This document shows, one piece after another, positions 24,344 through 49,600 of a stretch of 64,000 bases of DNA. The position numbers and the translations under genes are program-made. This stretch comes from Anaeromyxobacter sp. Fw109-5 (GTDB lineage: Bacteria > Myxococcota > Myxococcia > Myxococcales > Anaeromyxobacteraceae): contig NC_009675.1 of the NCBI RefSeq assembly GCF_000017505.1, positions 2,604,001 through 2,668,000 on the forward strand. The letters are read 5' to 3'. Numbering within the stretch: position 1 is the stretch's first letter; each line of letters begins with the position of its first letter. Under the pieces are notes generated by a model that saw only the letters and a program-made list of their open reading frames with translations, had not been told where the DNA came from and did not search any database.

Positions 24344-24564
24344 GCTTCCGCGCCCGCCACTCGGCGAGAGGTCCGCGGACCAGACGGCCGTCCGCGGAAA
24401 TTACTCTGGGTCGGGGCCTTGAAATTACTCTGGGTCGGGGCCTTCCGCCCGCCACTCGGCGAGAGGTCCGCGGACCAGACGGCCGTCCGCGGAAATTACT
24501 CTGGGTCGGGGCCTTTGGGGCCTAGGGTCGGGGCCTTCCGGAAATTACTCTGGGTCGGGGCCTT
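24344..24564. repeat. REP-like array 1 (four copies)
   Basis: AATTACTCTGGGTCGGGGCC occurs within units at 24398-24420, 24421-24444, 24492-24515 and 24541-24564, plus a partial at 24520-24537. Two units carry an upstream hairpin, TCCGCGGAC / GTCCGCGGA (stems 24372-24380/24390-24398 and 24467-24475/24485-24493), within a ~75-base unit duplicated at 24344-24420 and 24440-24515. The array separates the RAYT gene from an immunity-type gene, whose stop codon lies inside the last copy. Confidence 0.92.
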
Positions 24565-25057
24565 GGCCTTGGGCCTTCAGATCGCGCGAAGCAGCGAACG
24601 GGCGCTCGCGCCCACCAGTCCGAGACCTGAAGTAGTACACCCAGGGCGAACACCGGATGACTCGCTGCACAAACCGCCCGTCGGTCGCAACCCGGTATTG
24701 CGCGCTCTCAAGCACATCACCCCTCTTCGAACGCGCCGCTTTCAAAATGGCTGAGTACGAGACCGCATCGGGCGACAGCATCATCTCGGAGGGAGGCAAG
24801 CCTTCCCTCCCCTCGTCTCCCTCGACTTCAAGGAAGAGAGCTCTTCGCGCGGCGCTCACGTCCGGCGCCCACATCAAAGCCGAGGCCAGTCGCGCGCCAG
24901 CAACCTGCGCAGACTTGCTGCGAACCGCGATTATGAAACCGTCGGCTCGGCACTGGAAGAGCGTCAGCGCGACATGATGCGGCGCGAACCGTAAGTCATC
25001 GACGGCGGTGCCGGCGGGAATCCCGACCAACTCGTCCCATCCTACTTCGGCGGCCAC
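24545..25057 (-). CDS. Probable immunity protein for orphan toxin tip 1
   Basis: The 170-residue protein is not recognised as a known family. It is compact, with mixed alpha/beta sequence (HHVALTLFQCRADGFIIAVRS; WVYYFRSRTGG), and has no signal peptide. Its GTG start overlaps the end of the orphan Rhs tip gene by 16 bases, the standard coupling of toxin and immunity in Rhs/CDI modules. The last residues (GPDPE-stop) are encoded by the REP-like repeat, so the natural C-terminus may have been replaced when the repeat arrived. Function is inferred from position only. Confidence 0.65.
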   Translation of the reverse strand: MAAEVGWDELVGIPAGTAVDDLRFAPHHVALTLFQCRADGFIIAVRSKSAQVAGARLASALMWAPDVSAARRALFLEVEGDEGREGLPPSEMMLSPDAVSYSAILKAARSKRGDVLESAQYRVATDGRFVQRVIRCSPWVYYFRSRTGGRERPFAASRDLKAQGQGPDPE

Positions 25058-27272
25058 TTGAAGATCTCCCCCGTCACTCGGTTGTTCTCCAATGCATCTT
25101 TGGCGGCGGCCCGCAGAGCCTCATCTGGAAGCGCCTCGACGGCCTTCCTAACCTCCGGCATCCATGCCTTCAGCTTCTTGGGCGGCAACGACTTCGGGTA
25201 TCCCTTTCCGCTCGAACGATACTTCGCATCCCAGACAACGATGGACTCCGACTTCGGGTCATACGTGATGAAGTCCGGGCCCTTCTCGGAAACCTTGCCC
25301 GGTCCCTGGATGGGCTCATGGCCGCCCTTGAGCGCGGCATTCCAGCCCTTCTCTTCCGCTATCGCGCCGTTCACATGGCGCGGGTTGCCACCAGAGATCC
25401 TCGTGGGTCCCCCAGCCCTCGCCTCCATGTTCTTGGGGAATCGCTCGGCCGCAGACAACCCCTCCGCTCCGGCCGCAACCGTCCTGCCGTCCGCGGTCAC
25501 ACCCGCCAGCGCCGGCTTCGGCATCGGGCGAATGTTCTTCAGCCCGCGCCACACGCCAACGCCGGCCTCGCCGAGCGTCATGACCGTGGTGGCTGCGCCG
25601 ACACCGAACTCGCACGCTCCCGCCGTGCTCTGCATGCTCGCGGGCAGGCCGCTCACGTCGCCGACCGGCAGGACTCCGTTCCCACCGCCCAGGGCGCAAC
25701 CCATCACGTGAGCGCGCGCCGGTGTCGCCGTCCAGAACTCCCTCGTGTTCTTGGCAACGTCGCTGTTGTAGACGGCGTCGGAAACCGGCCGGGCGTTGCA
25801 CTTCACGTAACCGGCGAGCCACTGGGGTGAGTGGCTGGAGGCGTTGAACGCTGCGCCGTCGATGTTCCTCCAGTCATCGACTTCACCAGCGGCGCAACCC
25901 TGCAGCCAGTTGCCCGCGTCCGCGTTCTGATCGTTGAGCACCGCTTGATACTTCATGTCCTGCTGTGCTCTCGCCGATGTCGATTCTGGTTGCCCAACAT
26001 CCAACCCGAGCGGGTCCACATACAGCAGCGGGTTCCCCGCCGCGTAGACGAACGTCGCGAGACGTCCGGGTTGCATGAGCCGCTCGTCGCTCGCCTCGAG
26101 CGGATCCTCCGACAGGAACCTCCCGACGCTCGGGTCGTACCACCGCTGCTGCGCGTAGCTCAGTCCGACGTCCGCGTCCCAGTGCTGCCCCGCATACGCG
26201 AGGCTCGCCTCGGCGGCGCCAGGCGCACCCAGGCCGCGGAACCCGCCCCACGCGTCGTAACGGTACAGCGAGGACGACCCGTCGCTCCGCACCCGCCCGA
26301 CGATGGTGTCGAGCCCGTCGTGCATGAGCCGCTCGCTGCCGGCCGGCGTCCCGCCCGCTCCGTAAGCGCTCACCCCGACGACGAGCCCGCCCATCCGCTC
26401 GTACACGAGGCGCGTGCCGCTCGGCGCCACCTCCTCCACGAGGTCGTCCGCGCCCCACAGGTAACGGCTGTCACCGGTCGGACCGCTCTTCTCGATCCGG
26501 CGTCCGGCGAAGTCGTAACGGTACGTGAACGTGTCGACCGTGCCGCCTCCGCCAGCCACGGCCGGGCCGAGCTTGGCCTCGGCGAGCCTCCCGGCGGCGT
26601 CCCAGGTGAGCTCCTTCTTGCTCGTGCCACGCGTCTCGACCTTCACGCGTCCGGCGAGGTCCACCGTGTACGCGACCACCGCGACGCCCTGCTCGTCCGT
26701 GATGGACTCGAGCCCGCCCCGAGCGTCGTACCCGTACGTCTGCACCGCGCCCGTCGCCACGCCCCACCCGTCCGGGCCCAGGTCGCCCGAGAACGGCGTG
26801 ACGTGCTTCTCCGCCAGGCGGCTGCCGTCCCCGCCCAGCTGGTACAGCTTCGCCGTGCCGTCCGCGTAGGCGACGCCGGTCAGCCGGTCCGCCCGGTCGT
26901 ACCCGTACGACGTCAGCTCCGGCACCGTGACCGTCTCGCCCGTGTACTCCTCGCTCGTGCGGTTCCCGCGCTCGTCGTAGCCGTAGCGATACCGCACCAG
27001 CGGGGACTCGGAGAGCTCGCAGCTCTCTCCGGCGGCGACGTTCGACACCAGCGTCACGCGTCCGCGATCGTCGTAGCGGCGGCACTCGTGCAGCACGCCG
27101 TCCGCGACGTCCAGGAGGCGATCGCCTCCGGCCTCCCAGGTGAGCGTCGTCGACCTCGCGCCGGAGGCGATCGTCTGGAGACGGTCGAACGCCGGGTCGT
27201 AGCCGTAGTCGATCGTCCCGGCGGGCGACGTCATGGAGTCGAGCTGGCCGCTCGCGGTCCGCGCGTAAGAGA
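25042..27272 (-). CDS. Orphan Rhs core with PD-(D/E)XK-like toxin tip (module 1)
   Basis: A promoterless-looking Rhs fragment without secretion or shell domains. It begins at a fusion with a truncated RAYT gene (near 27272) at the Rhs sequence SYARTASGQLD. YD repeats and the RHS core RYDAWGGFRGLG...RFLSEDP follow, nearly identical to the full-length gene. After RFLSEDP the sequence is unique: FVYAAGNPLLYVDPLGLD, a ~200-residue linker, and a C-terminal nuclease-like domain. That domain shows KGPDFITYD (Asp at 25275-25273) and VVWDAKY (D-A-K at 25230-25222), a PD-(D/E)XK pattern. The first plausible internal start is ATG 27234 (730 residues). The frame is also open through the RAYT piece up to 27630 by chance. 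It is probably a stored cassette expressed only after recombination. Confidence 0.8.
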
Positions 27273-27659
27273 GTCGAGCACGTCCTCCGGGCTGACGAGC
27301 GCGACCGCGCTGTAGCTGCTCGGCGCCCAGAACGCCTCCCACCGTCCCAACGAGGCGTTCAGCGCGCGGGCGACGAGAGAGTCGAGGTACTGCTCGAAGG
27401 CGGGCAGCTGCGCGTCGGGATCCGTGACCACGAGATGAAAATGGTTGGAGAGCACGCAGAACGCGTGGACCAGCACGCCGAAGCGCTCGGCGGCGACTGC
27501 CAGGACGTAGAGGAAGACCTCGTTCACGACCGCCGACGGCCGGAGCAGGAACTGCCTCTGCGCGCAGCGACGCGTGACGAGATAGGTGGTTCCCGGAAGA
27601 ACCTGACGAGGCGCGGTCACTCCTGCCCACCTCGCAGGAGGCGTGCCACCGAGATTCAC
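27273..27659 (-). pseudogene. Truncated RAYT transposase, 5' fragment (copy 2)
   Basis: The first ~129 codons match the intact RAYT nearly identically, including NHFHL and the Tyr region, and stop matching after SPEDVLD. At that point (27272/27273) the sequence switches to Rhs core, and the RAYT frame runs 13 more codons into it before a stop. Start and ribosome site are preserved. It lacks the C-terminal half, so it is not expected to be active alone. Confidence 0.9.
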
Positions 27660-27663
27660 CGTG

Positions 27664-27763
27664 CTTCCGCGCCCGCCACTCGGCGAGAGGTCCGCGGACC
27701 AGACGGCCGTCCGCGGAAATTACTCTGGGTCGGGGCCTCGGAAATTACTCTGGGTCGGGGCCT
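27664..27763. repeat. REP-like array 2 (two copies with hairpin)
   Basis: Copies lie at 27716-27738 and 27741-27763. The hairpin TCCGCGGAC / GTCCGCGGA stands just before the first (27691-27699 and 27709-27717). The order hairpin - copies - immunity gene end is the same as in array 1. Confidence 0.9.
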
Positions 27764-28305
27764 CGGCCTTTGCGTTGAAGGTCGTAAGCGGCAGGAGCCT
27801 TCACGCTGCGCGTGAGCCGCCAACCTCTATCGAGCAACCCACCTGCTTCACGTCCCACGAAGCACGACTTCACTCGTGCGCAGTTTGCGCGGACTGCACG
27901 CTCTAGAGAACGGTAGAGGTTCACGGACTGGGCCTCCGCCGAGATGGTCGAAGCCTCCCCGGAGATCATCACGCCTTCCGAATGAATACCGCCCGGCCTC
28001 AGCAGAATAGAGCCGGGGTTTGCCATTTGGTCAACCGCATACCTGACCTCCCCGGAGTATTGCGGTATGGCGCGCACCACGATCTCGGTTCCGGCGGGCG
28101 CGACGAGATACGCGCGCTCGCGTTGCGCGTCGCCATGAACCGCGACACCCGCCCCTGGGTCTTCGGCCAGACTGTGGACGTCCTCTATCATTGGTTGTTT
28201 GTGCGACCCAGCCACGACGTAGTGAACCCGCTGCCTTGACTCAAACTCCTTTAACACATGCAGTAGGTCCTGCCGCGTTAGGAAGAAGAGGATCTGAGTT
28301 GCCAT
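27745..28305 (-). CDS. Probable immunity protein for orphan toxin tip 2
   Basis: The 186-residue protein is not recognised. Its ATG lies one base after the stop of the orphan Rhs tip gene, behind a GGAGG site within that gene, so the two are co-translated. The N-terminal ~140 residues look like a folded alpha/beta domain (ATQILFFLTRQDLLHVLKEFE). The final residues GRGPDPE and the stop codon come from the REP-like repeat, exactly as in the immunity gene of module 1, though the two proteins share no other similarity. The immunity role is inferred from position. Confidence 0.65.
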   Translation of the reverse strand: MATQILFFLTRQDLLHVLKEFESRQRVHYVVAGSHKQPMIEDVHSLAEDPGAGVAVHGDAQRERAYLVAPAGTEIVVRAIPQYSGEVRYAVDQMANPGSILLRPGGIHSEGVMISGEASTISAEAQSVNLYRSLERAVRANCARVKSCFVGREAGGLLDRGWRLTRSVKAPAAYDLQRKGRGPDPE

Positions 28306-30939: not shown

Positions 30940-31167
30940 ACCCGGCGAGAGGTCCGCGGACCAGACGACCGTCCGCGGAAACTACTCTGGGTTGGGCCCC
31001 CGGGCCCCCGGCCTCCGGGTTTGGGGCCTCGAATTACTCTGGGTCGGGGCCTCGCGAATTACTCTGGGTCGGCGCCTTCCGGGGTTGAGGCCTCGAATTA
31101 CGCTGGGTCGGGGCCTTGGAAATTACTCTGGGTCGGGGCTTGGGAAATTACTCTGGGCCGGGGCCTT
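30940..31167. repeat. REP-like array 3 (six diverged copies)
   Basis: Copies lie near 30977-30999, 31031-31052, 31056-31078, 31095-31117, 31119-31141 and 31144-31167, with substitutions such as CTACTCTGGGTT, TTACGCTGGG and GGCCGGGG. It is longer and more degenerate than arrays 1 and 2. It sits just downstream of the immunity gene of the full-length Rhs, which here keeps its own stop (31184) outside the repeat. Confidence 0.9.
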
Positions 31168-31183: not shown

Positions 31184-31579
31184 CTACTTCACGGAATGCA
31201 GGAGGATCACCCCAGCCGCGTCTACGATCCTAGGCGACCCGAGACGGAGGTCGCCTCCGTCAAGATCATATGGGGTCAAGATCAGCTTGTTCATCCCCGA
31301 GCCCTGCAGGTGCACAGACACGACGCGTTGATTGCCACCAGTCCCACCGCCGGGAGTAGTGCCCATCGAGAACAGGGCAGCGACCGGCACGTCACCTCCC
31401 AGCTCTCGATTGCGCAGTTCGGATCGAAGAGCTTCGATCGTGCCGTCCTCCGAGAGGACGCAGGTAGGCTTGCCGCCGGGCGACTCGAGGACCACGAGAA
31501 ATGGTGGAAAGCTACCCTCCGTGCGGAGCAACGAGTAGGCAAGTTCGTAGCCGGGTCCGAGAAAGCTCTCTGGCGTCAT
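31184..31579 (-). CDS. Probable immunity protein for the full-length Rhs toxin
   Basis: A 131-residue, cytoplasmic, unrecognised protein (TPESFLGPGYELAYSLLRTEG ... LRLGSPRIVDAAGVILLHSVK). It begins 64 bases after the Rhs stop codon on the same strand, the position of immunity genes in Rhs loci. The ATG at 31579 is favoured over an in-frame start 12 codons earlier for lack of a ribosome site there. It should neutralise the deaminase-like tip, but no sequence feature proves that. Confidence 0.65.
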   Translation of the reverse strand: MTPESFLGPGYELAYSLLRTEGSFPPFLVVLESPGGKPTCVLSEDGTIEALRSELRNRELGGDVPVAALFSMGTTPGGGTGGNQRVVSVHLQGSGMNKLILTPYDLDGGDLRLGSPRIVDAAGVILLHSVK

Positions 31580-31643: not shown

Positions 31644-34600
31644 CTACTCGGCCTTCTTCGGTCTCGTGATACGCCCCTGCTGGCTTGCGGTTCCAGTCAC
31701 ATTGATGATGCCTGCCTCCTGCTGACGAGCTTCACACTGAGGGCACGCGAAGTGCGAACTCGCCTGCCGCGCGCCTTGCGCTTCCTCGCCGACGAAGTGG
31801 ATTCCGCGCGCTTCGGCATGTTGCCCCGCCTCGCCGGGAGCGTTGCTCGACGTCGTGCCGCGCACGAAACGGACCTGCGGACCGAAGATCTCGGTCGCCT
31901 TCGCGCGCGCTGCAGGCCCGGGCACCTGCCCCACCTGTGACACAACCACCGTGGCCGCCGGCGTCACGGTGACCGCCATCGGGATGCCCTGGCCGCCGTT
32001 TCCGAACTGAGCCCGATGGATGGCGTCGATGCCCGACTGCAGCTGTTCGTCGCTCCACGGCAGGACGGTGGCAGGCTGCCGCTGCGGGGCGGCAGCAGCA
32101 CCCATTTGCGAGAAGTCGACGGCACGCGCCGCCATCTGCTGCTGAGCCGCATCAGAAGTAGAGCCTCTCCGCATCCCGCCGAAGCCCGTGCCGGCAGCCA
32201 CGACGTCCGACGCCGCCCCAACCGCGACAGTCACCCTGTGCTGCATCTCTTCGCTCGCTCCAGCGAGACGAGCCGCCTCGTGCGCAACCGATGCCGTCAC
32301 GCCGCCCCTCATCGCCGCGAGCGTTTCCGCGTTTCGCGCCCGTTGTGCCTGCACCTCCTCGACCTTGCTCGCAGGCACGACGAGCGGCCCGGCGCTCATC
32401 TCCTGCGTGCCCGACGGAAGCGTGATCGAGACGGGGCCTTGCCCGTGCTCAGCAGCGACGTCGATCGCGACGACGTCCTCACCGTCCGCAGCCTGGTCGA
32501 TACCCCGTCGGTACGCGTTGATGTTCCGAGCGAGGACCTTGGCACCCTGACTGTTACCATCGGAGTCGAACACGTCCCCGACCTTCTGGTACCAGGGCAG
32601 CTTGTCCCACGCGGCCTTGCGCCTGAGGTACTCCGCGTACCACTCGGCGTCTCGCGCCTTCTCTGCCTCCGTCATCGCGCGCTCGCCGAGCGGATCGATG
32701 AACGCGAGCGGGTTCCCATTCGCGTACGCCCAGGCATGCAGCGAAACCGGGTTCGTCGGATCCCCGAACACCGGATCCTCCGACAGGAACCTCCCGACGC
32801 TCGGGTCGTACCACCGCTGCTGCGCGTAGCTCAGTCCGACGTCCGCGTCCCAGTGCTGCCCCGCATACGCGAGGCTCGCCTCGGCGGCGCCAGGCGCACC
32901 CAGGCCGCGGAACCCGCCCCACGCGTCGTAACGGTACAGCGAGGACGACCCGTCGCTCCGCACCCGCCCGACGATGGTGTCGAGCCCGTCGTGCATGAGC
33001 CGCTCGCTGCCGGCCGGCGTCCCGCCCGCTCCGTAAGCGCTCACCCCGACGACGAGCCCGCCCATCCGCTCGTACACGAGGCGCGTGCCGCTCGGCGCCA
33101 CCTCCTCCACGAGGTCGTCCGCGCCCCACAGGTAACGGCTGTCACCGGTCGGACCGCTCTTCTCGATCCGGCGTCCGGCGAAGTCGTAACGGTACGTGAA
33201 CGTGTCGACCGTGCCGCCTCCGCCAGCCACGGCCGGGCCGAGCTTGGCCTCGGCGAGCCTCCCGGCGGCGTCCCAGGTGAGCTCCTTCTTGCTCGTGCCA
33301 CGCGTCTCGACCTTCACGCGTCCGGCGAGGTCCACCGTGTACGCGACCACCGCGACGCCCTGCTCGTCCGTGATGGACTCGAGCCCGCCCCGAGCGTCGT
33401 ACCCGTACGTCTGCACCGCGCCCGTCGCCACGCCCCACCCGTCCGGGCCCAGGTCGCCCGAGAACGGCGTGACGTGCTTCTCCGCCAGGCGGCTGCCGTC
33501 CCCGCCCAGCTGGTACAGCTTCGCCGTGCCGTCCGCGTAGGCGACGCCGGTCAGCCGGTCCGCCCGGTCATAACCGTACGACGTCAGCTCCGGCACCGTG
33601 ACCGTCTCGCCCGTGTACTCCTCGCTCGTGCGGTTCCCGCGCTCGTCGTAGCCGTACCGGTACCGCGCGAGCGGCGACTCCGAGAGCTCGCAGCTCTCTC
33701 CGGCGGCGACGTTCGAGACCAGCATCACCCGTCCCCGCTCGTCGTAGCGGCGGCACTCGTGCAGCACGCCGTCCGCGACGTCCAGGAGGCGATCGCCCCC
33801 GGCCTCCCAGGTGAGCGTCGTCGACCTCGAGCCCGAGGCGATCGTCTGGAGACGGTCGAACGTCGGGTCGTAGTCGTAGTCGATCGTCTCGGCCGGCGAC
33901 GACACGGAGTCGCGCGACGTCACGGAGTCGAGCTGGCCGCTCGCGGTCCGCGCGTACGAGACGGTCTGCGCGCCGCGGGTGATGCCCGTGAGTAGCCGGC
34001 GGTCGTCGCCGTAGGCGAACGAGATCGTGGTCGTGCCAGCCGAGCGCGTCTCGACGACGCGCACCAGCTGGTCGAGCGGATCGTAGTCCGCCTGGACCGC
34101 CGTCAGATCGCTCCCGGCGACCCCGCTGTACCCCGTGACCAGCGCGCGGCCGCGCCCGTCGAGCGCGCGGTGCGTGCCGACTCCCGTGGGATCGACGACG
34201 TCCGCGGCGCCGTTCGCCCACGTCGTCGTCCACGTCGCCCCGCCGCGCCTGCGGAAGATCTGGCGGCCCAGGTAGTCGTAGTCGAACCCCTGCCCCGCGC
34301 TGCCGCCGGAGGCAGGCGTGATCGCGGTGAGCTCCCCGCGGGCGTCGTACGCGTACTGGAACTTGCCGATCCCCCGCGGCTGCGTGACCGAGACGAGCTC
34401 GGCTCGAGGACCGTAATCGTACATCCAGCGATCCTGCTCGTCGCCGGGGCCGTGCTTCATGGACGCCAGGTTGCCGGCGGCGTCGTAGGTGAACTCCTTG
34501 AGGTCGAAGCTCGACCCGCGGCCGAACCGCTCGGTCGCGAGGAGCCCTCGAGCATCCCAGGTCAGCCGCCGCTCGCGCAGGTCGGGCGTGAGCTCGACGA

Positions 34601-37600
34601 GGAGCCTCCCGCTCGCGAAGTGGCCGTACCGCGTCTCCTCCTGGCTCGCGGTGGGTCCGTATTGCACGGACACGAGCAGGCCTTCCTGGTACCCGTACCT
34701 CCGCTCGGGAGCGGCGTGGCGGTTCTCGCGCAGGAGCCTCCCCGCCGCGTCCCAGGTCCACGCGTCCGCGAAGCCGCCCCAGGCCTGCTTGGTCACGTTC
34801 CCGAGGGCGTCGACGATCCGCTCGCCGGCCCTGGCGCCGGCGCCGGCGCCGGTGGTCCAGCTCTGGCTGATGGGGGCCACGCGTCCCGACCACGAGAGGC
34901 TCGTCTCGTACGTGTAGGCCGTCGCGTCCGGACCGGTGAACTCCTCGCTCTCGTGCAGCGTCCGGCCGCGATGATCGTAGCTGCGCTGCATGACGAGGCG
35001 CCAGCTCCCCTCCTCGGTGATCTCCTCGGTGGCCCACGGACCGTCATACGCGTAGGTGACGGTCCTCGTCTGGCTCGTGGACGTACGGCCGGGCGCGCTG
35101 TCGGTTCGCTCGTCCTTGAGGAGCAGGTGGCGGGCGTTGTGCCACCGCTTCGTGACGTAGCCGAGCGGATCCGTCTCCTGGATCGTGAAGTCGGTCCCGC
35201 CGCCGTAGGCGTACTTCCACGTCGCACCCTTCCATCCGGGCGACGAGCCCGCCGGCGGATCGGACAGCTTCTTCTCGAGGAGCTGCCGGAAGACGTCGTA
35301 CGTGTAGCTCCACTCCTCCTGCGGGTGCGGTCCGCTCTTCCCCCGCACGAGGCCGGATGCGTCGACGACATACGCGGTGACCGTTCCCGCAGCGTCGGTC
35401 TCGCGGATGAGGTTGCCGGCCGCGTCGTACGCCCGCGTCGAGACCGCCGTGTACTCGCTCGTCACCGGCGCGTCCGGCTCCGTCTCAACGTCGCCGATGG
35501 GCTCGCGGATCGTGACGAGGTTTCCGCGGGAGTCGTACTCGAAGTAACGATGGCTCTCGAGGGTCGCCCCGTCGCGGACGACGTAGTCGAGCGTGTGCAG
35601 CGTCCGACCCGTCGCGTCGAGCCAGAGCTTGCGGCGCTTCGTCAGCTGCCCGCCGACCTTCTCCTCGATGGCGACCGTGTGCTCGGCGGCGCCATCGGCG
35701 TAGGAGCGGGTCTCCTCGAAGAGCTCCGTGTACGGGGCGACGCTGCGCTTGTAGTAGGTCTGCCGTCCGAGGACGTCGTCGTACTTCCACTCCTCGACCA
35801 GCCCGAGGACCTCGTCGTTGGAGCCGAGCTTCCTGCCGAGGCGATCGTACGTCGTGATCGTCCGGAGCTGACCGCTCACCTGCGCCTCGACGTGCTTGAC
35901 GCGCCCGAGGGCGTCGACGGGCGACAGCCACTTGAAGTTCCCGTGCGTCCGCTCGACGACGGCGCCGCTCGGATCGCGCTTCACGGTCTCGACGTCCCGC
36001 TTCGACCCGTCCGCGCTGGCGGCCCCGTAGTCCCAGCTCGCCGGGCGGCCGAGCAGGTCGTAATCGATCGAGGTGACGAGACCGTTCTGATCCGTCTGCT
36101 CCTCGACCTTGCCTTCGCCGTCGAGCTTGTAGGCCACCTCCGTCGCGGTGATGTTCGTCCCTGGATCCGTGGCCGTGACCGAGATGAGCCGTCCGGAGTC
36201 GTCGTAGACGTAATCGCGCTGGATCGCGCGCTCGTCGGTGGCGAGCTCGAGGCGGCCGCCCTCGTACGTGAAGGTCCGCTTGGCCTCCGCGACCGGCTCG
36301 CCGTAAAGCCAGGTCTCCTGGACGAGGAGCCCGTCGCGGTAGAGCTTCACGCGCTTGTGCGAGGGAGCGCCCGTCAAGGTCTCGGTGACCTGGAGCTCCA
36401 GGTCGCCGGTCTCCGCGTACAGGTAGTGCCAGTCCTGATCCGGCATCCCCTTCATGAAGTGGCGCTGGAGGTTGCCTTCCGCGTCCCGAGTCCAGATCTC
36501 CTGGTCCGGTGTCCCCTTGACCAGGTGGCGCTCGAGGCGGCCCGCGGCGTCGTAGGTCCACTGCTCGTCGTGGCCCGCGTCGTCGTACACGCGCTTCAGG
36601 CGCCCGAGCCAGTCGTACTCACGGGTGCGCTTGACGCTCGGCCGTCCCCCCGTCGCGACCGACTGGAGCGCGGTCGTCGCGTCGGAGCCGAGGCCCCAAG
36701 GATCGTCCGCCGGGTAGGTGTAGCTCGTCACCCGCCCGACTGCGTCCACCGCGGTGAGGAGCCGCCCGTCGGCGTCGTAGGCGTCGAGCGAGGAGGACGT
36801 GAGGACCGTGCCCGCCTCGTCCCTGACGGTCAGGCTTCGGAGATCGCCGGTCCCGTCATCGACGGGCGTCTCCCAGGTGGCTTGCCCGCTCGCGGTCGCG
36901 CGGGTCGTCTCCTCGGGTACGCCGAAGGTCGGATCGTACGAGCCGGGCGCGTGCGCGCGGAGCACGGTGTCCTTCGCCGCTCCGGCGACGTCGAGTGAGT
37001 CCGCCTGGTTCAGGTCCGCGAGCTTCAGGGTGGTCGGGAGGAGCCGCTCGTTCGTGTCGAACGCGAGCTTGCGGCCACCCGGCGCGGTGCGGGAGCTGGG
37101 CGACACTCGCTCGCTCTCGCTCGCGTCGTTGAACCACGTGGTCGTCCGCGCCGTCACTCCGATCGTCTCTTCGGTCACGCTGCCGAAGGCGTTCGTGCCG
37201 ATCGCGACGCTGACCCCATCCGGGCGGACGACGTTGCGCCCGGTGGCGCTCACCCAGTCGATCTTGGTCTCGACCTCTGCGATGGCGGCCGTGTCTGCCG
37301 ACACGGTGCTCGTCCCCGGCAGCACGACCCGGTCGACGATCTCGAAGAGCTTCGTGTGGGGGAAGGGCTGGCTTGCGGCGAGGCTGCGGCCCCAGCGCGT
37401 CCGCCACTGGACGACGCCACGGAGCCTGAGCTCGGCCTTCACGAGCTCGTTCGTCGCCTCCCACAGGTCCTGCGCGGAGAGCGGCTTCCCGGCGGACGCG
37501 AGCGACTGGAGGTCCTCGACGTACGCGTACTCCCACGCCTGGTCGATCGTGACCTTGTCCTCCGACGCGATGCGCTGGACCTTCCAGAGGTTCCTCCGCC

Positions 37601-40600
37601 CGTCCGCCGTCGGGGCGAACGAGAGCCGGACGATGAAGTCCTCCGCAGCGCCCGACGGCGTCCCGTCTCCCGCCTGGAACCTCGCCACGACGGTCTTCAG
37701 GAAGCCGAAGCTCTCCGCGACCGCAGCCGCCTTGAACCGCGGCGACACGCTGGAGGCGAGGTCGACGGGCTCGTACGCGAAGTACAGCCCGAGCTTGCCG
37801 CCCTTGCGGTAGACGCGGCGGATCATGTCGGAGTCCGCGAAGTACTCGACGACCGTCCAGCCGGGGCCGAGCTTCGTCGCGTCCACGGCGTCTTGGCGGG
37901 CGTGACCGTCGCCGACGGCCGTGAGCACCCACCGCCGGCGGCCCGCCTCGCGGATCTTCTTGCGCGGCGGCGTCGCCTGGATCGGGGTGGAGTCGCCCAC
38001 CTTCGCCTGGTACTCGGCGAGCTCCTGCACCGAGCGGGCGGTGACGTACGCGTCGGTCGTGCCGACGACCTGGAGCGCGCGCTGAGAGTAGCGGTCGAAC
38101 CGGTAGCGCTCCCCGTTCGGCGCCGTGAAGAGGACGTCGGGGATGTGCTTGGGCGCTTGCGGATCGGTCTCGGGGCGCTCGGCGACGGTGAGCGTTCCTC
38201 CGTGCGCGTTGTCCGTCCTGCACTCGACGGCCGACCGCCGCCCGTCCGGCTCCTCACGCACGGTGCAGGCCGGGAAGTCGTACGACTGCCCCTCCAGGAC
38301 CATCGTGTAGCGCCCGAGCGACTCCTCGACGACGTACGCCTCGAAGTTGTGGCGCCACCCGATGCCCAGGGTGCCGATCTCGTTGTCCTGGTTGTTGTAC
38401 GTGCGCGCGAACCGCACGGTGCCGGCCAGCTCCGGCAGCGAGAAGTCCTCGTGCCGGAAGGACAGGTGCCCGTCGGCGACGTTCACGCCGCCGATGCCCG
38501 CCTGGCCCGGAGCGCGGGCGTTCGCGCCCTGGTAGGCGCCGACCGCCTTGCCGAGGTTCACGTCGTGCGCCTGCGCGTACGGGTCGGCCTTGTCGATCCA
38601 CTGGACGAACACGTCCGGCGGCGCCTCGGCGCGGCCCGGCATGCTGACGAGGTGCGGCGGGATCGGGACCCGGAACAGCGCTGCGCCATCGACGCCGGCG
38701 CGCGGCACCTGCTCGATCGCGCCGGCGCCTGCGAGCTCCTCCACGTCGAAGGAGCCGGTGTCGGCCCACGACAGGTCGAAGGACCGGATGAGCCCATCGC
38801 CGAAGCACGTCCCGGCGCAGACGTTCACGGTGCCCTGCTTGAACTGCGCCGGCCCGAGGAACACGTTCGCGAGCGCCGGCTCCGAGATGGAGCGGAGCAC
38901 CGCGGGGACGCCGCCCGCGTCGGCGGTGATCGACTTGCTCAGCGTCGACTGGTGCCCGGCCGTCACGAGGTCGCGCCGCGGGGAGAGCCCCTGGAGGTTG
39001 TACTTGTAGAGGATGTTCTCGGCGTTCCCCGCCATGGAGAGGCCGATGTAGACGACGTCGCGCCCGCTCAGCACGTCGTAGAGCCAGCCCCCGTCGCAGG
39101 TGGCGGTGAGCGTGCCGGCCTCCACCCGCACCGAGCACTCGATCCCGTACGCGTCGCTGCCGAGGCGGACCCCATAGCTCCCAGGCAGCGTGCCGGCCCG
39201 GCCGGCGTCCGGGGCGACGAGGTTCATCAGGAGCTGATACGAGAGGTCTCCGTCGAGCGCGGCGTGGGCGGTCGTCCCATCCGCCGGATCGTCGACGCTG
39301 CGGCTCGTGCCGTCCGCCTGCTTGGCGGTCACCGAGGTGAGCGTCAGGTCGAGCACGCGGAACTCGTGCTCCCGGTCCCGATCGAACCGCTCCAGCGCCG
39401 AGCCGTCGGGCTCGAGGCTCCGGTAGACGTTCTTGAGCGCGATCGCCCGCTCGGGCATGCCGGTCTTCCACGACTCGTCGGCGTTCGCGGGCTCGCTGAA
39501 GGCCGGCGGCGACACCGCGATCTCCGTCGCGGGATCGATGCGGCCGTCGCCGTTGCGGTCGTTGAACAGCGTGAGGTTTCCGACGACGTGGACGTAGTAG
39601 CTGGCCTTCTGGAGGTTCGTGGTGATCCTCTGGGAGGCGCTCGTCCCGGAGGTCCCGTCCGTGGGCGCTGCGGTGTTCTCGACCCGCAGCGCCGCCTGGA
39701 TGTTGCTCGTCCCCTTCCCCGGGTGGATCGGGAACACCGCCACAGCGGGTCTCTCGACGGAGGTCCCCGTCACGCGGACGAGCTGCCCCGCGAGCGGCGG
39801 GACGCCGGCGGGCACGTCCATGAGGCGCGCCTCGAGCTTCGTGCAGATCTTGATCTGATCCGGGGTCGGGTTGACGAGCTCCGAGCAGTACCGCTCGAGC
39901 ATCTTGCCCGGACCGCCGGCGATCCTGGGCGGCGCAGGCGGCGGCGTCCACTCCGGGTGCGCAGGATCGGGGCAGCCGTGGTTCGCGCCGGGACCCGGGC
40001 TCCAGATGCAGGCGTCGTCCGGGTCCGCGGTGCCGTCATCGTCCGTGTCGAACCGGCTCACGAGCGACGGGCAGCCGGCCGGCGTGCTGCCGACCGCGAC
40101 CGAGGGGCCCGGGTACAGGGGGCAGAGATCCTGGATGTCGGCGACCCCGTCGCCATCGGCGTCGCCTTCCCCCGAAGCCGGCGGAGTCCAGTACGGGTCG
40201 TTCGGGTCGGGGCAACCGGCGTTCGTCGTCGGCCCCGGCTGCAGCACGCAACCCGCCTGCTCCGAGGCGTCGGGCGTTCCGTCGTGATCGCTGTCGGTCC
40301 CGGCCGGGCAGCCCGAGCTCGCCGCATCGCCCGCCAGCAGCGGGCAACGGTCGGCGACATCGGACGTGCCGTCGCCGTCGCGATCGTAGGTGATGTCGGG
40401 GATGCCGTCGCCGTCGGCGTCGAACGGGTCGACGGCGGGACCGGGTTGCACGCCCGAGTACTGATACGGCCAGGGCGTGCCGCCGGTGCTTGGGATGCCG
40501 TCGACCGGGAGCGCGGGCGGCGCAACCGGCGTCTCCGGAGGCACGGGCGGCGGCTCCCACATCGGCTGGTTCGGGTCCGGGCACCCGAACGTATTCGGGG

Positions 40601-43600
40601 GTCCGAGCTGTGTCGGGCAGCGGTCGGTCAGGTTGGCCGTACCGTCGCTGTCCAGGTCCTCGGGCGGGAGCCGGACGCGCCAGTGCGTGGAGACGTGCAC
40701 GAACTCGTCGCGGACGGTCGCCGAGCCGCCGTGGCGGACGAGGTGCTCGGAGGCGGTCGTCGCGGCGTCCTCGGCGCGGACCTGCCTCGCGACGCGCACG
40801 TCGATCTCCGGCGGGTAGAGGCGCACGTTCCCGAAGACGCGGAGGTCCTGCCTGGCGCAACGAGAGATCGTGAGCGTCTCGCCGAAGTCGGGGAACTCGA
40901 TCGGCCCGCCCGCGGCGTCGTCCGCCGCACAGTGCTGGTTCTGGTCGAGCCCCTCGAGCGTGGTGATCGGCGGGACCACGACGGTCGTCGCCCCGGCGTA
41001 GCCGGTCGCGTGGTTCACGGCGAAGACGACGATGCGGTCGCCCTGCGAGAGGCGCAGCGTGAGGATCCGCTCCTGCCCCTCACACCGGAACTTGAAGTAC
41101 TCCGTCGCCGTGGCGCCGGCGGCCCTGAGCTGATCGCACTCCTCGCGGTCTCGCCGCGTCCAGCGCTCCGACGGCCCGAAGCGGAGCCGCTTGTACTCGC
41201 CGTGCGCGCTCGTGGCCGTGCACTGGCCCGCATCCGGCGGCGTCGCGAGCGTGTACCGCGCGATGGGCGTCTCGAGGTCGTCCTCGCGGAAGAAGTAGAC
41301 CTCCGTCTGTCCGACGTCCTCCCGCGCGATGCGCGTCAGCTCGTTGCGGGCGGGATCCCACTCGGACCCCTCGTCCTCGCCGCAGGCGAGCTCGACCCGC
41401 GTGTCGTCGCGGTTGTAGAAGTTGATGCTGCCGAGCAGGAGCCGCATGTCGACGAGCAGGCTCACCGGCGAGAAGGAGCCGGGCGAGACGCCGTACGCGT
41501 TCGAGCAGACCGGGAACCCATCCGTGATCGGGTAGCGCACGATCTTCGGGCTCTCCGCGTCGGAGCGGTCGGCCTGCGCGATCCAGCGGAGCCCCGTCTG
41601 CACCTCGGTGCAGACGAGCGCGCCTTGCTGCGACCCGTAGGAGAACACCGGGATCGAGAACTGGCCGCGGGTTCCGGAGACCCCGCGAACGCTCGTCGCG
41701 CTCGTGACCTCCACCGGCCAGTTGGAGAAGAAGCTGATGCCGGACGATGCGGCCGAGTCGTCCGTCTCGACGAGCTGTCGAACGACGAGCGTGCCGCGGC
41801 GCTCGGGCTTGCCCGTCACCGGGTCGACGATGGAGGGATCCGGAGGCAGCTCCGTGACGACGGCCTCGAGGCGCGTCGTGCGAGAGTCTCGTCCCGCCTG
41901 GGCCTCGGCGGTGATGAGCGTCGTCCCGGGCTCGAGCTGCACGTGGCCTCGAACGGTCACGTCGCCGCCCTCGCCCTGGATGGGCGTCTCCTGCCCCCAG
42001 TTCTCCAGCACGGGCGGCGCGATGACCGTCTGGCCGCGCTGCGCGCGCATCGAGAGCTGGATGGAAGCGGACGACCCTGCCTCGGGCCTGGCGACGAAGA
42101 CCACCTCGTGCAGGTGCGGGAGACCGACGATGCCTCCCTCCGTGCCCGCGGTAACGTCGATCCTGAACTCCAGCTCCTGCGGCGAGCGGATCTTCCCGGA
42201 GATGAAGGCGGTCCCGACGTTCGGCTCCGGCAGCCCGCCGAGGCCCATCTGGTCCCAGAACGCCTGAGCGCGGCCGCCACCGAGTGGAAGCATGAGCAGC
42301 TTCGCGAGGAGCGGCAGGTCGTCGCGCGCCGCAGCGGGCTTCATGCGGAAGCCGGTCGTTTCCTCGGGGGGCGGCGTCGCGGTCCCCTCCGGCGCCGGGC
42401 TCAGCGTCGCCTCGAGCCACGCCTGCTGCTCGTCGGAGACGTGGCCGTACCCGAAGAAGTCGAGCGCGCTCACGCCGGTGGGCTCGAGCGTCGTCAGCGT
42501 AGCGCCGTCCGCTGCCACCCTTGCGACGCCGACGCGCGCGAGCATGTGCCGGTCGGGGTCGTACCCATAGACGAGCGCGTATCGTCCGGCCGGAAGGGCC
42601 GTGACGTTCGGGAACGTCAGGTCCACCGGTTGCGCGATCCGGATCCCGACGGGCCCGACCTGCCAGAGGGCCGCGAGGTCGGCGCGACCGTCGTCGATCG
42701 GGACCGGCAGCGCGTACCTGGGGATGCGGGTGGCCGTGACGAAGCCGGCGGTCTTGCCGTCCTCGAAGTAGAGGCCGTCGGCGGGGACGTCGATCGCGAG
42801 CCCTTCATGCCGGCCAGAGAACGTGAGGTGCATCGCCGTCCGCGCGTCGACGTGATCGACCGCGCCACGATCGACCGGCACCATCACGAGGTGCGCGTCC
42901 TTCGTGTCCTCCGTGGCGCTCACGAAGAGGCGCCGCCGGATCACCGGGAGCGCGGCCCCGTCGCCGAGGACGCCGCCCTCGAACCGAACCACGACTGCGC
43001 CGGGCTTCACGCCGAAGAGGTGCCAGCTTCCCTCCGGACCGGTGCGCGTCGAGAGGCTCGTGCCCTCCACGGACACGAGCACGTCCTCGAGCGGCTCCAG
43101 CTGCGCGTCCAGCACGTGCCCCTCGAGCTGGAACCGCCGCGGGCGAACGCCGAACTGGCTCGTGAAGACGCCGCTCATGTCGGGCCCGGCCTCCGCCTCC
43201 ACTCCGTCGACGCGGACGTCCAGCCGCTTGCCCTCCGGCAGAGGGCCGCGCGCGACGAAGCTCACGGTCTGCGCTCCCGGCGCGACGTAGTAGCCCCCCT
43301 CGAGCGGCGTTCCCTCCACCGACACGGTGAAGTGGCCCGCGAGGCTGTCGCGAACGATCGGCTTGTTGAACGCGACCGACACGAGGGCGCTCGGCTCGAT
43401 CTCGCTCGCCCCGGGGATGGGATCGACGCCGGTGACGGCGAGCGGCTCCTTGGTGGCGTCGCTGAACCGGACCTTGACCGACGCGGACCCGGTGAGGCCG
43501 CTGGCGTCCGTCGCGACGACCGAGATGACGTTCTCGCCGTAGGCGAGGGCGAAGTCCGCCACCCACTCACCGCCCTCGAGCTGCGCGGGGCCCGTCCCGA

Positions 43601-46600
43601 TCGACACCGACTGCAGTGACGCCGTCGCGTCCACCCGCGCGCGAACCTTCACGATGGGCGTGGCCGACTCGCTCCCGTCGATCGGCGCGAGGATGGTGAC
43701 GGCCGGCGGGAGCGCAGCCACCGTCAGCGTCAATGTGCGGGTGGTCACGTTGCCGGCGAAGTCGCGCGCAGCCACCTCGATCTCGTTGGCGCCGACCTGG
43801 AGCGGCACCGCCGCGGAGAAGTCGCCGCCCAGCAGGGTCGCCGGGGTGCCGCCGACCGTGACGGACGCCAGGTGAACGTCGCCCACCGTGCCCCGCACGA
43901 GGTACGGGGACTCGGTGGCCTCCTCGGCGCTCGAGGCCGGTCGGGTCACGGCGAGATACGGCGCCGTGTGATCGACGCTCACCTGCCGCTGCGCGGTCGC
44001 CACCTGCCCGGCGGCGTCGGTCGCCTTGATGACCAGGGTGTGGTCGCCCTCCACGAGCGCGGGGGCGGCGTTGAAGTAGCCCGACGTCACGGACGCAGCC
44101 ACCCCCGCGACGGTCACCTGCACCGGAGCCGTGCCACCCTCCACGCGGCCGGTCACCGGCACCGTTCCGCCGCCGAGGATCGCGCCGTCGGCAGGGGCAT
44201 CCACCATGAGCTGGAGCGCGCCCTCGGCGGGCGGCTCCTCGGGAGGCGGCGGCGGCTCTTCTGGAGCCTCCTGCCCGTTGTGACCCGTGATCGTCGTCGC
44301 CGTGGTGCGCCCGGCGATGTCGGTCGCGATCACGTTCAGGGTCACGGGGCCGGGCGCGACGTCGACGGACGTGGAGAAGCTCCCGTCTCCTCCGACCGCC
44401 ACCGCTGCGCCATTCACCGTGACCATCACGGGACCGCTGGCGGAGGTGGCGGTGCCGCGGACGGCGACGGGGGACATCGTGGTCACGAAGTTCGCCCCCG
44501 GCTCGGCAATCACCAGCCTGGGCGGCTCCTGGCGAACCGCGAACCGAACGGTGCGCGTGGAGGCGTTGCCGATGGAGTCCTCCGCGTGCACCACCAGCTC
44601 GTGGTCGCCCTCCAGGTAGACGGAAGTGCAGCCCGAGAAGGCGGCGCCGCCGTCGAGGGAGGCCTCGACCGAGGCGACGCCGCTCGGATCGTTCGCCTCC
44701 ACGCACACGAGCAGCGGGAGCTCGCCGCTGACCTGCCCGTCCTCGACGCCCGAAACGAGGATGCTCGGTCCTTGCGAATCCACGCCCACGTCGAACTCGA
44801 CGCTCGCCCGGGCGTTGTTCGACTCGTTCGACTCGTTGACCTGGTTCGAGGAGTCGGCGATCGCGCCGAAGTAGTACTTCCCGGGGGACGTGGCGGAGGG
44901 GATCGTGACGGAGGTATCCGCGACGCTCGTGGCTCCGGCGGCCAGTCCGGGTACGCTCCGCGATCCCAGGTACACGTCGGACTTGGTGATGTTCGCGTCG
45001 CGGGAGAGGTAGAGCGCCACGCTGAAGCCGGTCGTGGGGCCGATCGCGGCGGTGACGGCGTTCCGGACCGTCACTGCCTTCCCCGAGGCCGCGAGAGCGG
45101 GGCCGCTCACCTCCGAGACGACGAGGTCGGGGAGCGTGATCTCGATCTCGGCGCTCGCCCTGGCGTTGTTCGACTCGTCGGACTCCTTGACGGCGTCCTG
45201 GACGTAGTAGCCGTCCCATTCATCGCCGATCCAGACCGGGAAGTTGTCGGCGATGACGCCGAGGAAGTACTTGCCCAGCGCGAGGTTGGCAGGGAGCGTG
45301 ACCGTGGTCGCCTCGGCGCTCGTCGCGCCGGGGACGAGACCGTCGACCCACCGCTGCGCGAGGAGCGTGTCCGAGCCGTCGATGATCGCGTCCTTGGACA
45401 GGAAGACGCCGACGTAGAACCCCGGTGCGCTTCCGCCCGCCGCGCTGGCCGTGATCGTGTCGTTCACCACGATGCTGCTGCCCGCGACCGCGGTTGCCGG
45501 CGCGCTCACGTGGGACGCCATGAGATCGGATCCGATTATCGTGATGGCGTTGCCGGCGCGGGCGTTGTTCGACTCGTCCGACTCTCCCAGCTTGCCCTGT
45601 GAGTCGGCGATCGCGCCGAGGTGATAGCCTCCGCCGGGCAGATCCACGGGGATGGTGACCGCCGTCGACGCGGCGTCGGAGGCGCCCGGCGAGAGGCCGT
45701 TCACGGAACGCGTCGCCAGGAGGCGATCCGAGGTGGTGATGATCGTATCGGACGAGAGGTACAGGCCGACCGAGAACGCCGGCGCGTCCGTGCCATCGGG
45801 CGCCGCCGTGACCGTGTTCGCGACGTTGATCGCCTCGCCCGTGCGTGCCGCCGCGGGACCGGCGACCGCGCTGATGGTCAGGTCCGGCGCCGCGACTGTG
45901 AGCTCGTTACCGGCGAGGGAGTTGTTCGTCTCGCTCGACTCGGCGACCTGGTTCCAGCAGTCGACGATCGCCCCGAGGTACCACCTGCCAGGCGCGAGGT
46001 TGGCGGGGATCGTCACCGGGGTCGTCGCGGCGCTGCTCGCGCCGGCGGCGAGGCCGCTGAGGTTCCGCGTCGCGAGTCGAACGTCGCTGGTCGTGATGGT
46101 CGGGTCGCTGGACAGGTAGATGCCCACGGTGAACCCGGGCGCGTCTCCGCCTTCCGGGGCCGCCGAAACGGTGGTCTCGACGTTCACCGTCGACGCGATG
46201 GCCGCCGCCATGGGCCCGCTGACTGCGGAGACGACCAGGTCGGAGCCCGAGATCGTCACGTCGTTCCCGGTCCTCGCGTTGTTCGACTCGTCCTCCTCCA
46301 GCACCTGGTTGGCGGAGTCCGCGATCGCGCCGAGATGGTACACGCCAGGCGGGAGCCATGCCGGGACCGTCACGGGGGTCTCCGCCGTGCTCGAGCCGCC
46401 GGGAGTCAGGCCCGGGACCGCCCGGTAGCCAAGGTAGCGATCCGCGCTCGTGATCGTGGCATCCGTCGACAGGTAGAAGGCGACCTTGAACGGGCCCGTG
46501 CCCGCCCCCACGGTCGCGACCGTGTTTCTCACCACGAGCGGCTTGCCGGTCGAAGCCGTCGAAGGCGCGCTCAGCTCGGCGACGACGAGGTCCGCGCCCC

Positions 46601-49600
46601 CGATCCCGATGGTCCCGCCGGCGAGCGCGTTGTTCGCCTCGTCGGACTCCTTCGCCAGGTCCTCGACGATGTAACCTTCCCATTCGTCCCCCATGTAGAC
46701 GGGGAAGTCGTCGGCGACGGCGCCGACGAAGTACGTTCCGAAGGGGAGATTCACCGGCAGCGTCACGGCGGTCGCGTCGAACGACGAGGCCCCCGGCGCC
46801 AGCCCGCCCACCCAGCGGTACCCCAGCAGCCTGTCCGAAGCGGTGATCACCGCGTCGGAAGAGAGAAAGATCCCGACGTAGAACCCGGGCGCCGCGCCGC
46901 CCGACACGTCCGCCTCGACCGTGTTCTCCACCACGATCGTCTCTCCAGCCAGCGCAGACGTGGGCGCGACGACCGTCGCCACGAAGAGGTCCGGCGCGGT
47001 CACCAGGAGCGAGCCCGCGAGGCGCGCGTTGTTCCCCTCGTCCGCCTCCACGACCGAACTCGACCAGTCGACGATGGCGCCGAGGTAGTACGTGCCGCCG
47101 GCCAGCTCGGCCGGCACCACCATCGCCGTGTTGCCCGAGCTCGACGAACCCGCGGCGAGCCCGTTCACCACGCGCTCGCCGATGCGCAGGTCGGACGTCG
47201 TGATGACCGCGTCCGTGGACAGGTAGAACCCCACCCGGAACGGGCCGGAGTTCGCTGCCCCGGCCTGCGCGGTCACCGTATCCGCCACCGAGATGGTCTC
47301 GCCGGTGAGCGCTCCCGCGGGCCCGGACACGCTGGTCACGAGGAGATCCGGACCGGTCACGGTGATCACGCCGCCGGCGAGCGCGTTGTTCCGCTCCTCC
47401 GACTCGCCGAGGTAGTTCGCGTAGTCCGCGATCGCGCCCAGCCGCCACGATCCCGGCGCGACGCTCGCCGGGATCGTCACGTTCGTCGAGGCGCTGCTCG
47501 TCGCTCCCGCGGCGAGCGACGACACGCTCCGGCTACCGAGGAACACGTCGGACGTCGTGACGACGTCGTCCTTCGAGAGGTAGATCCCGACGGAGAAGCC
47601 CCCCGCGTCCCCACCCGCGCTGCTCGCAGTGACGGACGTGTCGACCGCGATCGTCGCGCCAGAGAACGCGCCAGCAGGCCCGCTGACCGCGGAGATCGTC
47701 AGATCCGAGCCTGTGACGGCGATCACGGTCCCCGCGAGCGCGTTGTTCGTGTCATCCTCTTCCACGACATAGTTCGAGCCGTCGGCGATCGCGCCGAGGA
47801 AGTAGCTTCCGTGTGCCGTCGCGGCCGGGATCGTCACCGTCGTGTCTGCGGTGCTCGAGCCGCCGGGCGCGAGCCCGGGGACGGCCCGATTCCCGAGGAA
47901 TCGGTCCGACGCGGTGATCGTCGCGTCGGGCGACAGATAGAGGGCGACGTTGAACGAGCCCGCCCCTCCGCCGAGGGACGTCACCGTATTTCGAACGACG
48001 ACGGGCCGCCCCGTCAGCGCATCGGCCGGGCCGCTCACCTCCGCCACGACGAGGTCCGCCCCGCCGAGGACGAGCGCGCCGCCGGCGAGCGCGTTGTTCG
48101 TCTCGTCCGACTCCTTCGCCTCGTCCGCGATCCAGTAGCCGTCCCACTCGTCGCCGATGTAGACCCCGAAGTCGTCGGCGATCACGCCCAGGTAATAGGT
48201 CCCAGACGCGAGGTTCACCGGCAGCGTCACGGGGGTCGGATCGTACGACGTCTCGCCGGGCTCGAGCCCGTCCACCCAGCGGTAGCCGAGCAGCCTGTCG
48301 GACGCCGTGATCACCGCGTCCGAGGAGAGGAAGACCCCGACGAAGAACCCGGGGGCCGCGCCGCCCGACACGCTCGCCTCGACCGTGTTCTCCACCACGA
48401 TCGTCTCACCCGCGAGCCCTGCAGCGGGCCCGATCACCGAAGCCACGAACAGGTCAGGCGCAGTCACGAGCACCGTGTTCGCCTCGAGCGCGTTGTTCCC
48501 CTCCTCCTCTTCCACCACCTGGTTCGCCCAGTCGACGATCGCGCCGAGGTGGTACGTGCCGCCACCCAGCCCGGCGGGCACCGCGATCGACGTGGTGCCC
48601 GAGCTCGACGACCCCGCGGCGAGGCCGTTCACCACGCGCTCGCCGATGCGCAGGTCGGACGTCGTGATGACCGCATCCTCGGACAGGTAGAACCCCACGC
48701 GGAACGCCCCCGCGTCCGCGCCGCCGGCCTGCGCCGTGACCGTATCCGTCACCGTGATCGTCTCGCCGGTGAGCGCGCCCGCTGGACCGGACATGCTGCT
48801 CACGACGAGGTCCGGGCCGGTCACGGCGATGACGCTGCCCGCCAGCGCGTTGTTCGTCTCATCCGGCTCGGCGAAGTAGTTCGCATGGTCCGCGATCGCG
48901 CCCAGGCGCCAGGTCCCCGGCGCGATGGTCGCCGGGACCTTCACGGAGGTCGTCGCGGTGCTCGTCGCTCCTGCCGCGAGCGAAGACACGCTCCGGCTCC
49001 CGAGGAACACGTCGGACGTCGTGATCACGTCGTCCTTCGAGAGGTAGAGCCCGACGGAGAAGCTGCCCGCGTTGCCCGCGGCGCTGGTCGCGGCGACCGT
49101 CGTCTCGACCGCGATCGTCATGCCGGAGAACGCGGTCGCCGGGCCGCTCACGCCCGAGATGGTCAGATCGGGCCCGATCACCGAGAGCGCGCTCCCGAGG
49201 CGCGCGTTGTTCGTCTCGTCTCCCTCGACGACGTAGTCGTTGCGATCGGCGATCGCGCCGAGATAGTACGAGCCGGAGGCCGTCACCGGGATCGTCAGCG
49301 TCGTGTCCACGGTGCTCGAGGTCCCCCCCGCGAGCCCCGGCACGCTCCGCGTCCCGAGCAGGACGTCGGATGTCGTGATCGTGGCATCGCGGGAGAGATA
49401 GAGACCGACTATGAAACCGCCGGTACCTCCTCCGACGGCGGAGACCGTGTTCCGGACGACGATCGTCGACCCGCTCGAGCCGGTCGCCGGGCCGCTCACC
49501 TCCGCGATGACGAGGTCTGCGCCCTGGATCGCGATCGGTCCGGCGAGCGCCGCGTTGTTCGACTCGTCGGACTCGTGCGCCTGGTCCTGGACGTAGTAGC

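What the first reader, a model, noticed from the sequence alone, without database searches (positions are those of the whole stretch)
31644..32767. Deaminase-like toxin tip on the expressed Rhs protein
The last ~60 residues contain H6052-A-E6054 and, 23 residues later, C6077-P-Q-C6080 in the setting SSHFACPQCEARQQEAGIINV. This is the zinc site pattern (HAE ... CxxC) of the cytidine deaminase-like fold found on many bacterial toxin tips. It could edit DNA, RNA or free nucleotides. The region before it (TVLPWSDEQLQSGIDAIHRAQFGNGG) looks like the start of the tip domain.
Basis: partly seen in the sequence, partly recalled or inferred. Interest (0 to 1): 0.7.

Follow-up and report, generated by a model that had tools for sequence, protein, structure and literature searches.

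The report
Deaminase-like toxin tip of Rhs protein
The end of a giant bacterial weapon protein carries the zinc-site signature of base-altering deaminase enzymes, conserved in two distant relatives mounted on different delivery proteins, so it is probably a rare, undescribed branch of a known kind of bacterial toxin, though its fold and target are unproven.

Summary
The motif is real: HAE (6052-6054) and CPQC (6077-6080) end the 6109-residue Rhs protein, the only such pattern in it; 113 of 200,000 shuffled tips show one. The ~140-residue domain has two relatives in 195 whole genomes of the phylum, both in one distant genome, on a SpvB/TcdB-type protein and on an Rhs protein beside a PAAR gene. 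At 32-34% identity, H, E, C and C are invariant. Nothing was found in plasmids, phages, viral contigs or genome contigs. Pfam, NCBIfam, PADLOC and PHROGs have no model for it; Pfam's dCMP deaminase model matches in register below threshold (E 0.024). A permissive plasmid search returned mostly Vibrio deaminases aligned HAE-to-HAE and CPxC-to-CPxC. Structure prediction without a usable alignment failed, so the fold is unproven. The setting is classic polymorphic toxin: conserved Rhs core, foreign-looking tip, adjacent small gene with an orphan paralog, and two displaced Rhs modules with other tips. Best reading: a rare deaminase-toxin family, substrate unknown (0.75).

The parts
31644..49973 (-). 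6109-residue Rhs protein: ten CARDB stretches, Ig-like/glucodextranase-B domains, DUF6531, RHS repeats, Rhs-associated core, C-terminal tip
   Evidence: ORF; Pfam; TIGR03696 Rhs_assc_core, E 8.9e-19
31644..32330 (-). variable C-terminal cassette (residues ~5882-6109); third-position GC 0.77 against 0.92 for the whole CDS
31647..32069 (-). deaminase-like toxin domain, residues 5969-6109
   Evidence: homology to L048 and L049 tips
31812..31820 (-). HAE motif, residues 6052-6054 (predicted zinc ligand His and catalytic Glu)
   Evidence: invariant H.E
31734..31745 (-). CPQC motif, residues 6077-6080 (predicted zinc ligands)
   Evidence: invariant C..C
31184..31579 (-). 131-residue ORF starting 64 bases after the toxin stop; candidate immunity protein, no family match
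   Evidence: orphan paralog 40% identical elsewhere in the same genome
28307..30604 (-). displaced Rhs C-terminal module with a different tip (96.5% DNA identity over 1586 bases of core)
27745..28305 (-). 186-residue ORF right after that module, candidate immunity protein of the displaced tip
   Evidence: no Pfam match
25042..27630 (-). second displaced Rhs C-terminal module with a third tip (98% DNA identity over 1144 bases of core)
24545..25057 (-). 170-residue ORF overlapping the end of that module, candidate immunity protein of the third tip
49970..50836 (-). PpiC-type peptidyl-prolyl isomerase gene overlapping the start of the Rhs gene by 4 bases; possible export chaperone
   Evidence: (PF13616, E 4.9e-21)

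Best explanation
The last ~140 residues are the toxin domain of a polymorphic Rhs toxin and most likely have a small cytidine-deaminase-like fold. His6052, Cys6077 and Cys6080 would hold one zinc ion and Glu6054 would shuttle the proton in hydrolytic removal of an amino group from a base in DNA or RNA (less likely a free nucleotide) of a competing cell. The Rhs shell would carry the domain out and release it after cleavage near the DPLG motif; the 131-residue neighbour would protect the producer. Shown: motif, its conservation, cassette structure, adjacent small gene. Inferred: fold, zinc, chemistry, release, immunity. Unknown: substrate.
For: Motif exact and unlikely by chance. H, E, C and C invariant at 32-34% identity in two homologs on unrelated backbones, SpvB/TcdB-type and an Rhs protein beside a PAAR gene. 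Pfam PF00383 aligns in register, positions 38-98 of 102 (E 0.024, below cut-off). In a tblastn of all plasmids at E<=10, six of eight records were Vibrio; the two read are a dCMP-type deaminase, ungapped HAEARGIHFVGEEAQGARQASSHFACPQCEARQQEAGI against HAEENAILFAKRDLDGCEIYVTHFPCPNCAAKIIQTGI. hhalign of the three-sequence family places both motifs on TadA in register and beats most column-shuffled versions: YwqJ 1/150, HAE..ACPNC pair 2/150, TadA 4/150, dCMP 14/150; ten decoys mostly do not. Residue order fits the C-terminal-hairpin layout described in PMC3482391: helix, two strands, HAE helix, strand, CxxC helix, NVTG strand, GRI strand. Polymorphic context.
Against: No curated deaminase family reaches threshold. 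hhalign probabilities are about 4% or less; plain pairwise scores against TadA and dCMP deaminases do not exceed shuffles; outside the motif residues similarity is weak. AlphaFold2 gave mean pLDDT 59 and 43 with the zinc-site half under 55, and fold searches were uninformative. The usual proline before the first Cys is Ala in all three members. An extra helix and strand sit before the HAE helix. The decoy IS66a scored 1/40, so the hhalign excess alone is not decisive.
Confidence: 0.75

Rival explanations
1. The tip is a zinc-dependent toxin of another fold, for example a nuclease or protease, in which His and the CxxC pair hold a structural or catalytic zinc.
For: No significant match to any deaminase model and no confident fold; many Rhs tips are nucleases (PMC3482391).
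Against: H-x-E paired with C-x-x-C 23 residues later, in register with dCMP deaminases over 38 ungapped residues and with TadA by hhalign; the three sequences share only two invariant His, one of them in the HxE motif.
Confidence: 0.15
2. It is a deaminase-fold domain that acts on free nucleosides, nucleotides or another small molecule rather than on DNA or RNA (a sub-case of the deaminase reading).
For: The closest weak matches are dCMP-type deaminases, which act on nucleotides.
Against: Characterised toxin deaminases DddA, SsdA and a BaDTF3 member act on DNA (PMC7901873). The sequence similarity found is confined to the zinc site, which does not report on substrate.
Confidence: 0.2
3. The domain is a degenerate, inactive tip.
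For: Small family; two other tips lie displaced downstream in the same array.
Against: The frame is open to its own stop, all four motif residues are intact, and this is the tip joined to the full-length protein.
Confidence: 0.08

Closest known systems
sce3516-like toxin deaminases (Zhang et al. 2012, PMC3482391)
   Same: HAE plus CxxC; tips of polymorphic toxins, including from delta-proteobacteria; T6SS and TcdB/TcaC delivery among others; C-terminal hairpin layout
   Different: Their sequences could not be compared here; their listed immunity is SUKH, whereas the 131-residue neighbour matches no Pfam family at E<=1
YwqJ-type deaminases (PF14431)
   Same: Myxococcota members show two strands, a helix, then G-x-H-S-E and later P-C-x-x-C, a similar layout; hhalign score exceeded in only 1 of 150 column shuffles
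   Different: No PF14431 match in this genome; the best alignment covered only the strand-2 region; no additional strand before the HAE helix is evident
dCMP deaminase / TadA (PF00383)
   Same: HAE and CPxC in register with the tip
   Different: Housekeeping enzymes with PC-x-x-C; the tip ends ~30 residues after the CxxC and is below the Pfam cut-off
DddA-like (PF14428, BaDTF1)
   Same: Deaminase toxin on a polymorphic carrier; HxE plus CxxC
   Different: PF14428 finds nothing in this genome, though it finds one member in the phylum

Membership tests
Rhs polymorphic toxins | Rhs repeats and Rhs-associated core directly before the tip | tested here: met
   PF05593, TIGR03696 E 8.9e-19
Rhs polymorphic toxins | conserved core with exchangeable C-terminal tip | tested here: met
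   Three modules with 96-98% DNA identity in the core and unrelated tips
Rhs polymorphic toxins | cognate immunity gene directly downstream | tested here: inconclusive
   131-aa ORF 64 bases downstream on the same strand with an orphan paralog in the genome; protection not tested; more distant relatives are standalone genes not beside Rhs genes
Deaminase superfamily (cytidine deaminase-like fold) | HxE (or CxE) and CxxC zinc-site motifs with suitable spacing, conserved in the family | tested here: met
Deaminase superfamily (cytidine deaminase-like fold) | five-strand sheet with the two motif helices forming one zinc site | tested here: inconclusive
   AlphaFold2 models of pLDDT 59 and 43, zinc-site half unreliable; fold searches uninformative
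Deaminase superfamily (cytidine deaminase-like fold) | significant sequence-profile match to a deaminase family | tested here: inconclusive
   PF00383 sub-threshold E 0.024 in register; hhalign above most shuffles but low probability
DddA-like deaminases (PF14428) | match to the family model | tested here: not met
YwqJ-deaminase (PF14431) | match to the family model | tested here: not met
XOO_2897-deam (PF14440) | match to the family model | tested here: not met
sce3516-like deaminases | HAE and CxxC motifs | tested here: met
   family description in PMC3482391
sce3516-like deaminases | sequence relationship to sce3516 | not testable with these tools
   sce3516 is not in the collections reachable here and the paper's supplementary alignment is not available
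sce3516-like deaminases | SUKH immunity protein | tested here: not met
   No Pfam match of the 131-aa neighbour at E<=1

The most novel reading that the evidence does not exclude
A separate, undescribed family of deaminase toxins (H[ASG]E-x-R-G-I ... A-C-x-x-C ... N-V-T-G-T ... G-R-I), found so far in only two genomes but on three different delivery proteins. It would have an added helix-strand unit before the zinc site, Ala in place of the usual Pro, and its own base and sequence preference, possibly usable as a compact base editor.
Probability: 0.4. Interest if true: 0.6.

Novelty: new member of a known kind. Interest (0 to 1): 0.45.

Why it matters
Toxin deaminases are known mutagens between bacteria and the source of base editors that work without CRISPR. 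No library searched here models this family; it is small (about 140 residues) and comes with a candidate immunity gene, so its activity can be tested directly. The same tip on three delivery proteins also illustrates how freely such cassettes move.

Tried and rejected
Close homologs in genome contigs (2 scans), viral contigs (3 scans with the tip, its alignment or a homolog, plus 1 DNA pattern), plasmids and phages: none. Weak whole-genome matches at E 1e-4 to 0.1 in other Myxococcota: none of the loci fetched for them showed a credible HxE..CxxC in register, so they were taken as chance. PDB sequence hits (VP35, an antibody) are chance. Fold search with the poor model: several cytidine deaminases at E about 2-3, TM about 0.2, and S-adenosylmethionine synthetases by VIA-align at Z under 5; not interpretable. 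The search with the PF14437 'MafB19' model hit in all 195 genomes; the top loci read are TadA-type housekeeping deaminases, so it was no help as a toxin yardstick. Immunity relatives in other Myxococcota are standalone genes, so they give no guilt-by-association.

Full report
What is there. The minus-strand ORF 31644-49973 encodes 6109 residues. The protein has no other H-x-E-x(15-45)-C-x-x-C, and 113 of 200,000 shuffles of the 141-residue tip produce one. The protein carries ten CARDB stretches, Ig-like and glucodextranase-B domains and DUF6531 (PF20148), then RHS repeats and the Rhs-associated core. A PpiC-type isomerase gene overlaps its start by 4 bases. The first ~18 residues look like a short signal peptide (inference from sequence).

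Cassette structure. The tip is the end of a three-module array. Two further Rhs C-terminal modules lie downstream on the same strand (28307-30604 and 25042-27630). They share 96.5% and 98.0% DNA identity with the main gene over 1586 and 1144 bases, then run into unrelated tips, each followed by its own small ORF. Identity between the main gene and the first displaced module ends near residue 5882 (window ~32330), so the variable cassette is about residues 5882-6109. It has lower third-position GC (0.77) than the whole gene (0.92), and the small downstream ORF is lower still (0.70). The pre-tip region of this core was found in no other genome of the family at E<=1e-20 (24 genomes). This is the anatomy of an Rhs polymorphic toxin with displaced older tips.

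Relatives of the domain. In 195 whole genomes of the phylum the domain has two relatives, both in one distant genome (E 3.7e-10 and 2.6e-8). One is the C-terminus of a SpvB/TcdB-type protein (L048), the other of an Rhs protein encoded after a PAAR-motif gene (L049). Identity is 32-34%. H-x-E, C-x-x-C and N-V-T-G-T...G-R-I are invariant. Because the three carriers differ and homology is confined to the tip, the domain is a mobile toxin module and the four motif residues are under constraint. No relative was found in genome contigs, viral contigs, phages or plasmids.

Is it a deaminase? No NCBIfam, PADLOC or PHROG model gives a meaningful match. Pfam PF00383 aligns with the motif in register at E 0.024, below its cut-off. 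A permissive tblastn of all plasmid records (E<=10) gave eight records, six of them Vibrio. The one with an annotated gene is a cytidine/deoxycytidylate deaminase family protein, and a second one read out encodes the same kind of protein, aligned HAE to HAE and HFxCPxC to HFxCPxC without gaps over 38 residues at 37% identity. hhalign of the three-sequence family against TadA from the same phylum puts both motifs in register. Its score is exceeded by only 4 of 150 column-shuffled versions; for YwqJ deaminases 1 of 150, for an HAE..ACPNC pair 2 of 150, for dCMP deaminases 14 of 150. Ten decoys gave mostly middling ranks, one gave 1 of 40. Pairwise scores do not exceed shuffles, and beyond the motif residues similarity is weak. 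The order of elements fits the C-terminal-hairpin division described in PMC3482391: helix 7-22, strands 31-35 and 41-46, an extra helix 52-62 and strand 67-73 (AlphaFold2, the better half of the model), then the HAE segment, a short strand, the CxxC helix and NVTG...GRI. Myxococcota YwqJ deaminases also appear to have two strands and a helix before their HSE (read from sequence).

Mechanism. If the fold is right, His6052, Cys6077 and Cys6080 bind zinc and Glu6054 transfers protons, as is established for this superfamily. Toxins of this superfamily that have been characterised deaminate cytosine in DNA (PMC7901873), so nucleic acid is the first guess, but the sequence does not decide the substrate. 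The DPLG sequence at residues 5760-5763, typical of the end of Rhs shells, suggests release of the C-terminal fragment by cleavage (inference).

Immunity. The 131-residue ORF starts 64 bases after the toxin stop and matches no Pfam, NCBIfam, PADLOC or PHROG family. A 40%-identical paralog, shortened at its C-terminus, sits alone next to an IS66 transposase elsewhere in the genome (transposase named from its sequence), as expected of an orphan immunity gene. A profile search found more distant relatives (28% identity) as standalone genes in other Myxococcota. The immunity role is therefore positional inference.

Verdict. This is a new, rare member of a known kind (polymorphic deaminase toxins), possibly an undescribed family. 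It cannot be filed in DddA-like, YwqJ or XOO_2897 by model, and membership in the sce3516-like family could not be tested.

Noticed in passing
window 24399-24558, 27718-27758, 30980-31161: A repeat with core AATTACTCTGGGTCGG forms small arrays at the end of each of the three tip/immunity modules; 13 matches in the window with up to 2 mismatches against 0.01 expected. No unusual fold as single-stranded DNA.
   Followed up: partly
window 30493-30924 and 27231-27659: Truncated IS200-like Y1 transposase (PF01797, E 4e-4) fragments run into the start of each displaced Rhs module. With the repeat arrays they may mark or have caused the displacement of older tips; the pairing resembles REP repeats with RAYT transposases.
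   Followed up: partly
window 28307-28890 and 25042-25900: The displaced tips are unrelated to the deaminase-like one; the third contains GPDFITYDPKSESIVVWDAKYRSSGKGYP, which looks like a PD-(D/E)XK nuclease.
   Followed up: no
window 50874-63998: An open frame of at least 4374 residues with LVIVD, PPC and Ig-like domains lies upstream of the PpiC and Rhs genes and may belong to the same surface or secretion locus.
   Followed up: no
L002 / L066 (same genome, 4289726-4290058): Orphan paralog of the 131-residue ORF, shortened at its C-terminus, next to an IS66 transposase.
   Followed up: partly
L063, L064, L065, L184, L186-L189: A conserved standalone ~140-residue protein in other Myxococcota (MNDEELL...LPFGLTLD...) is a distant relative of the candidate immunity protein; its function is unknown.
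   Followed up: partly
L161, L164: Two Myxococcota proteins carry a C-terminal HAEC...ACPNC deaminase-like domain below the YwqJ cut-off, a further little-described group that also has Ala before the first Cys.
   Followed up: no
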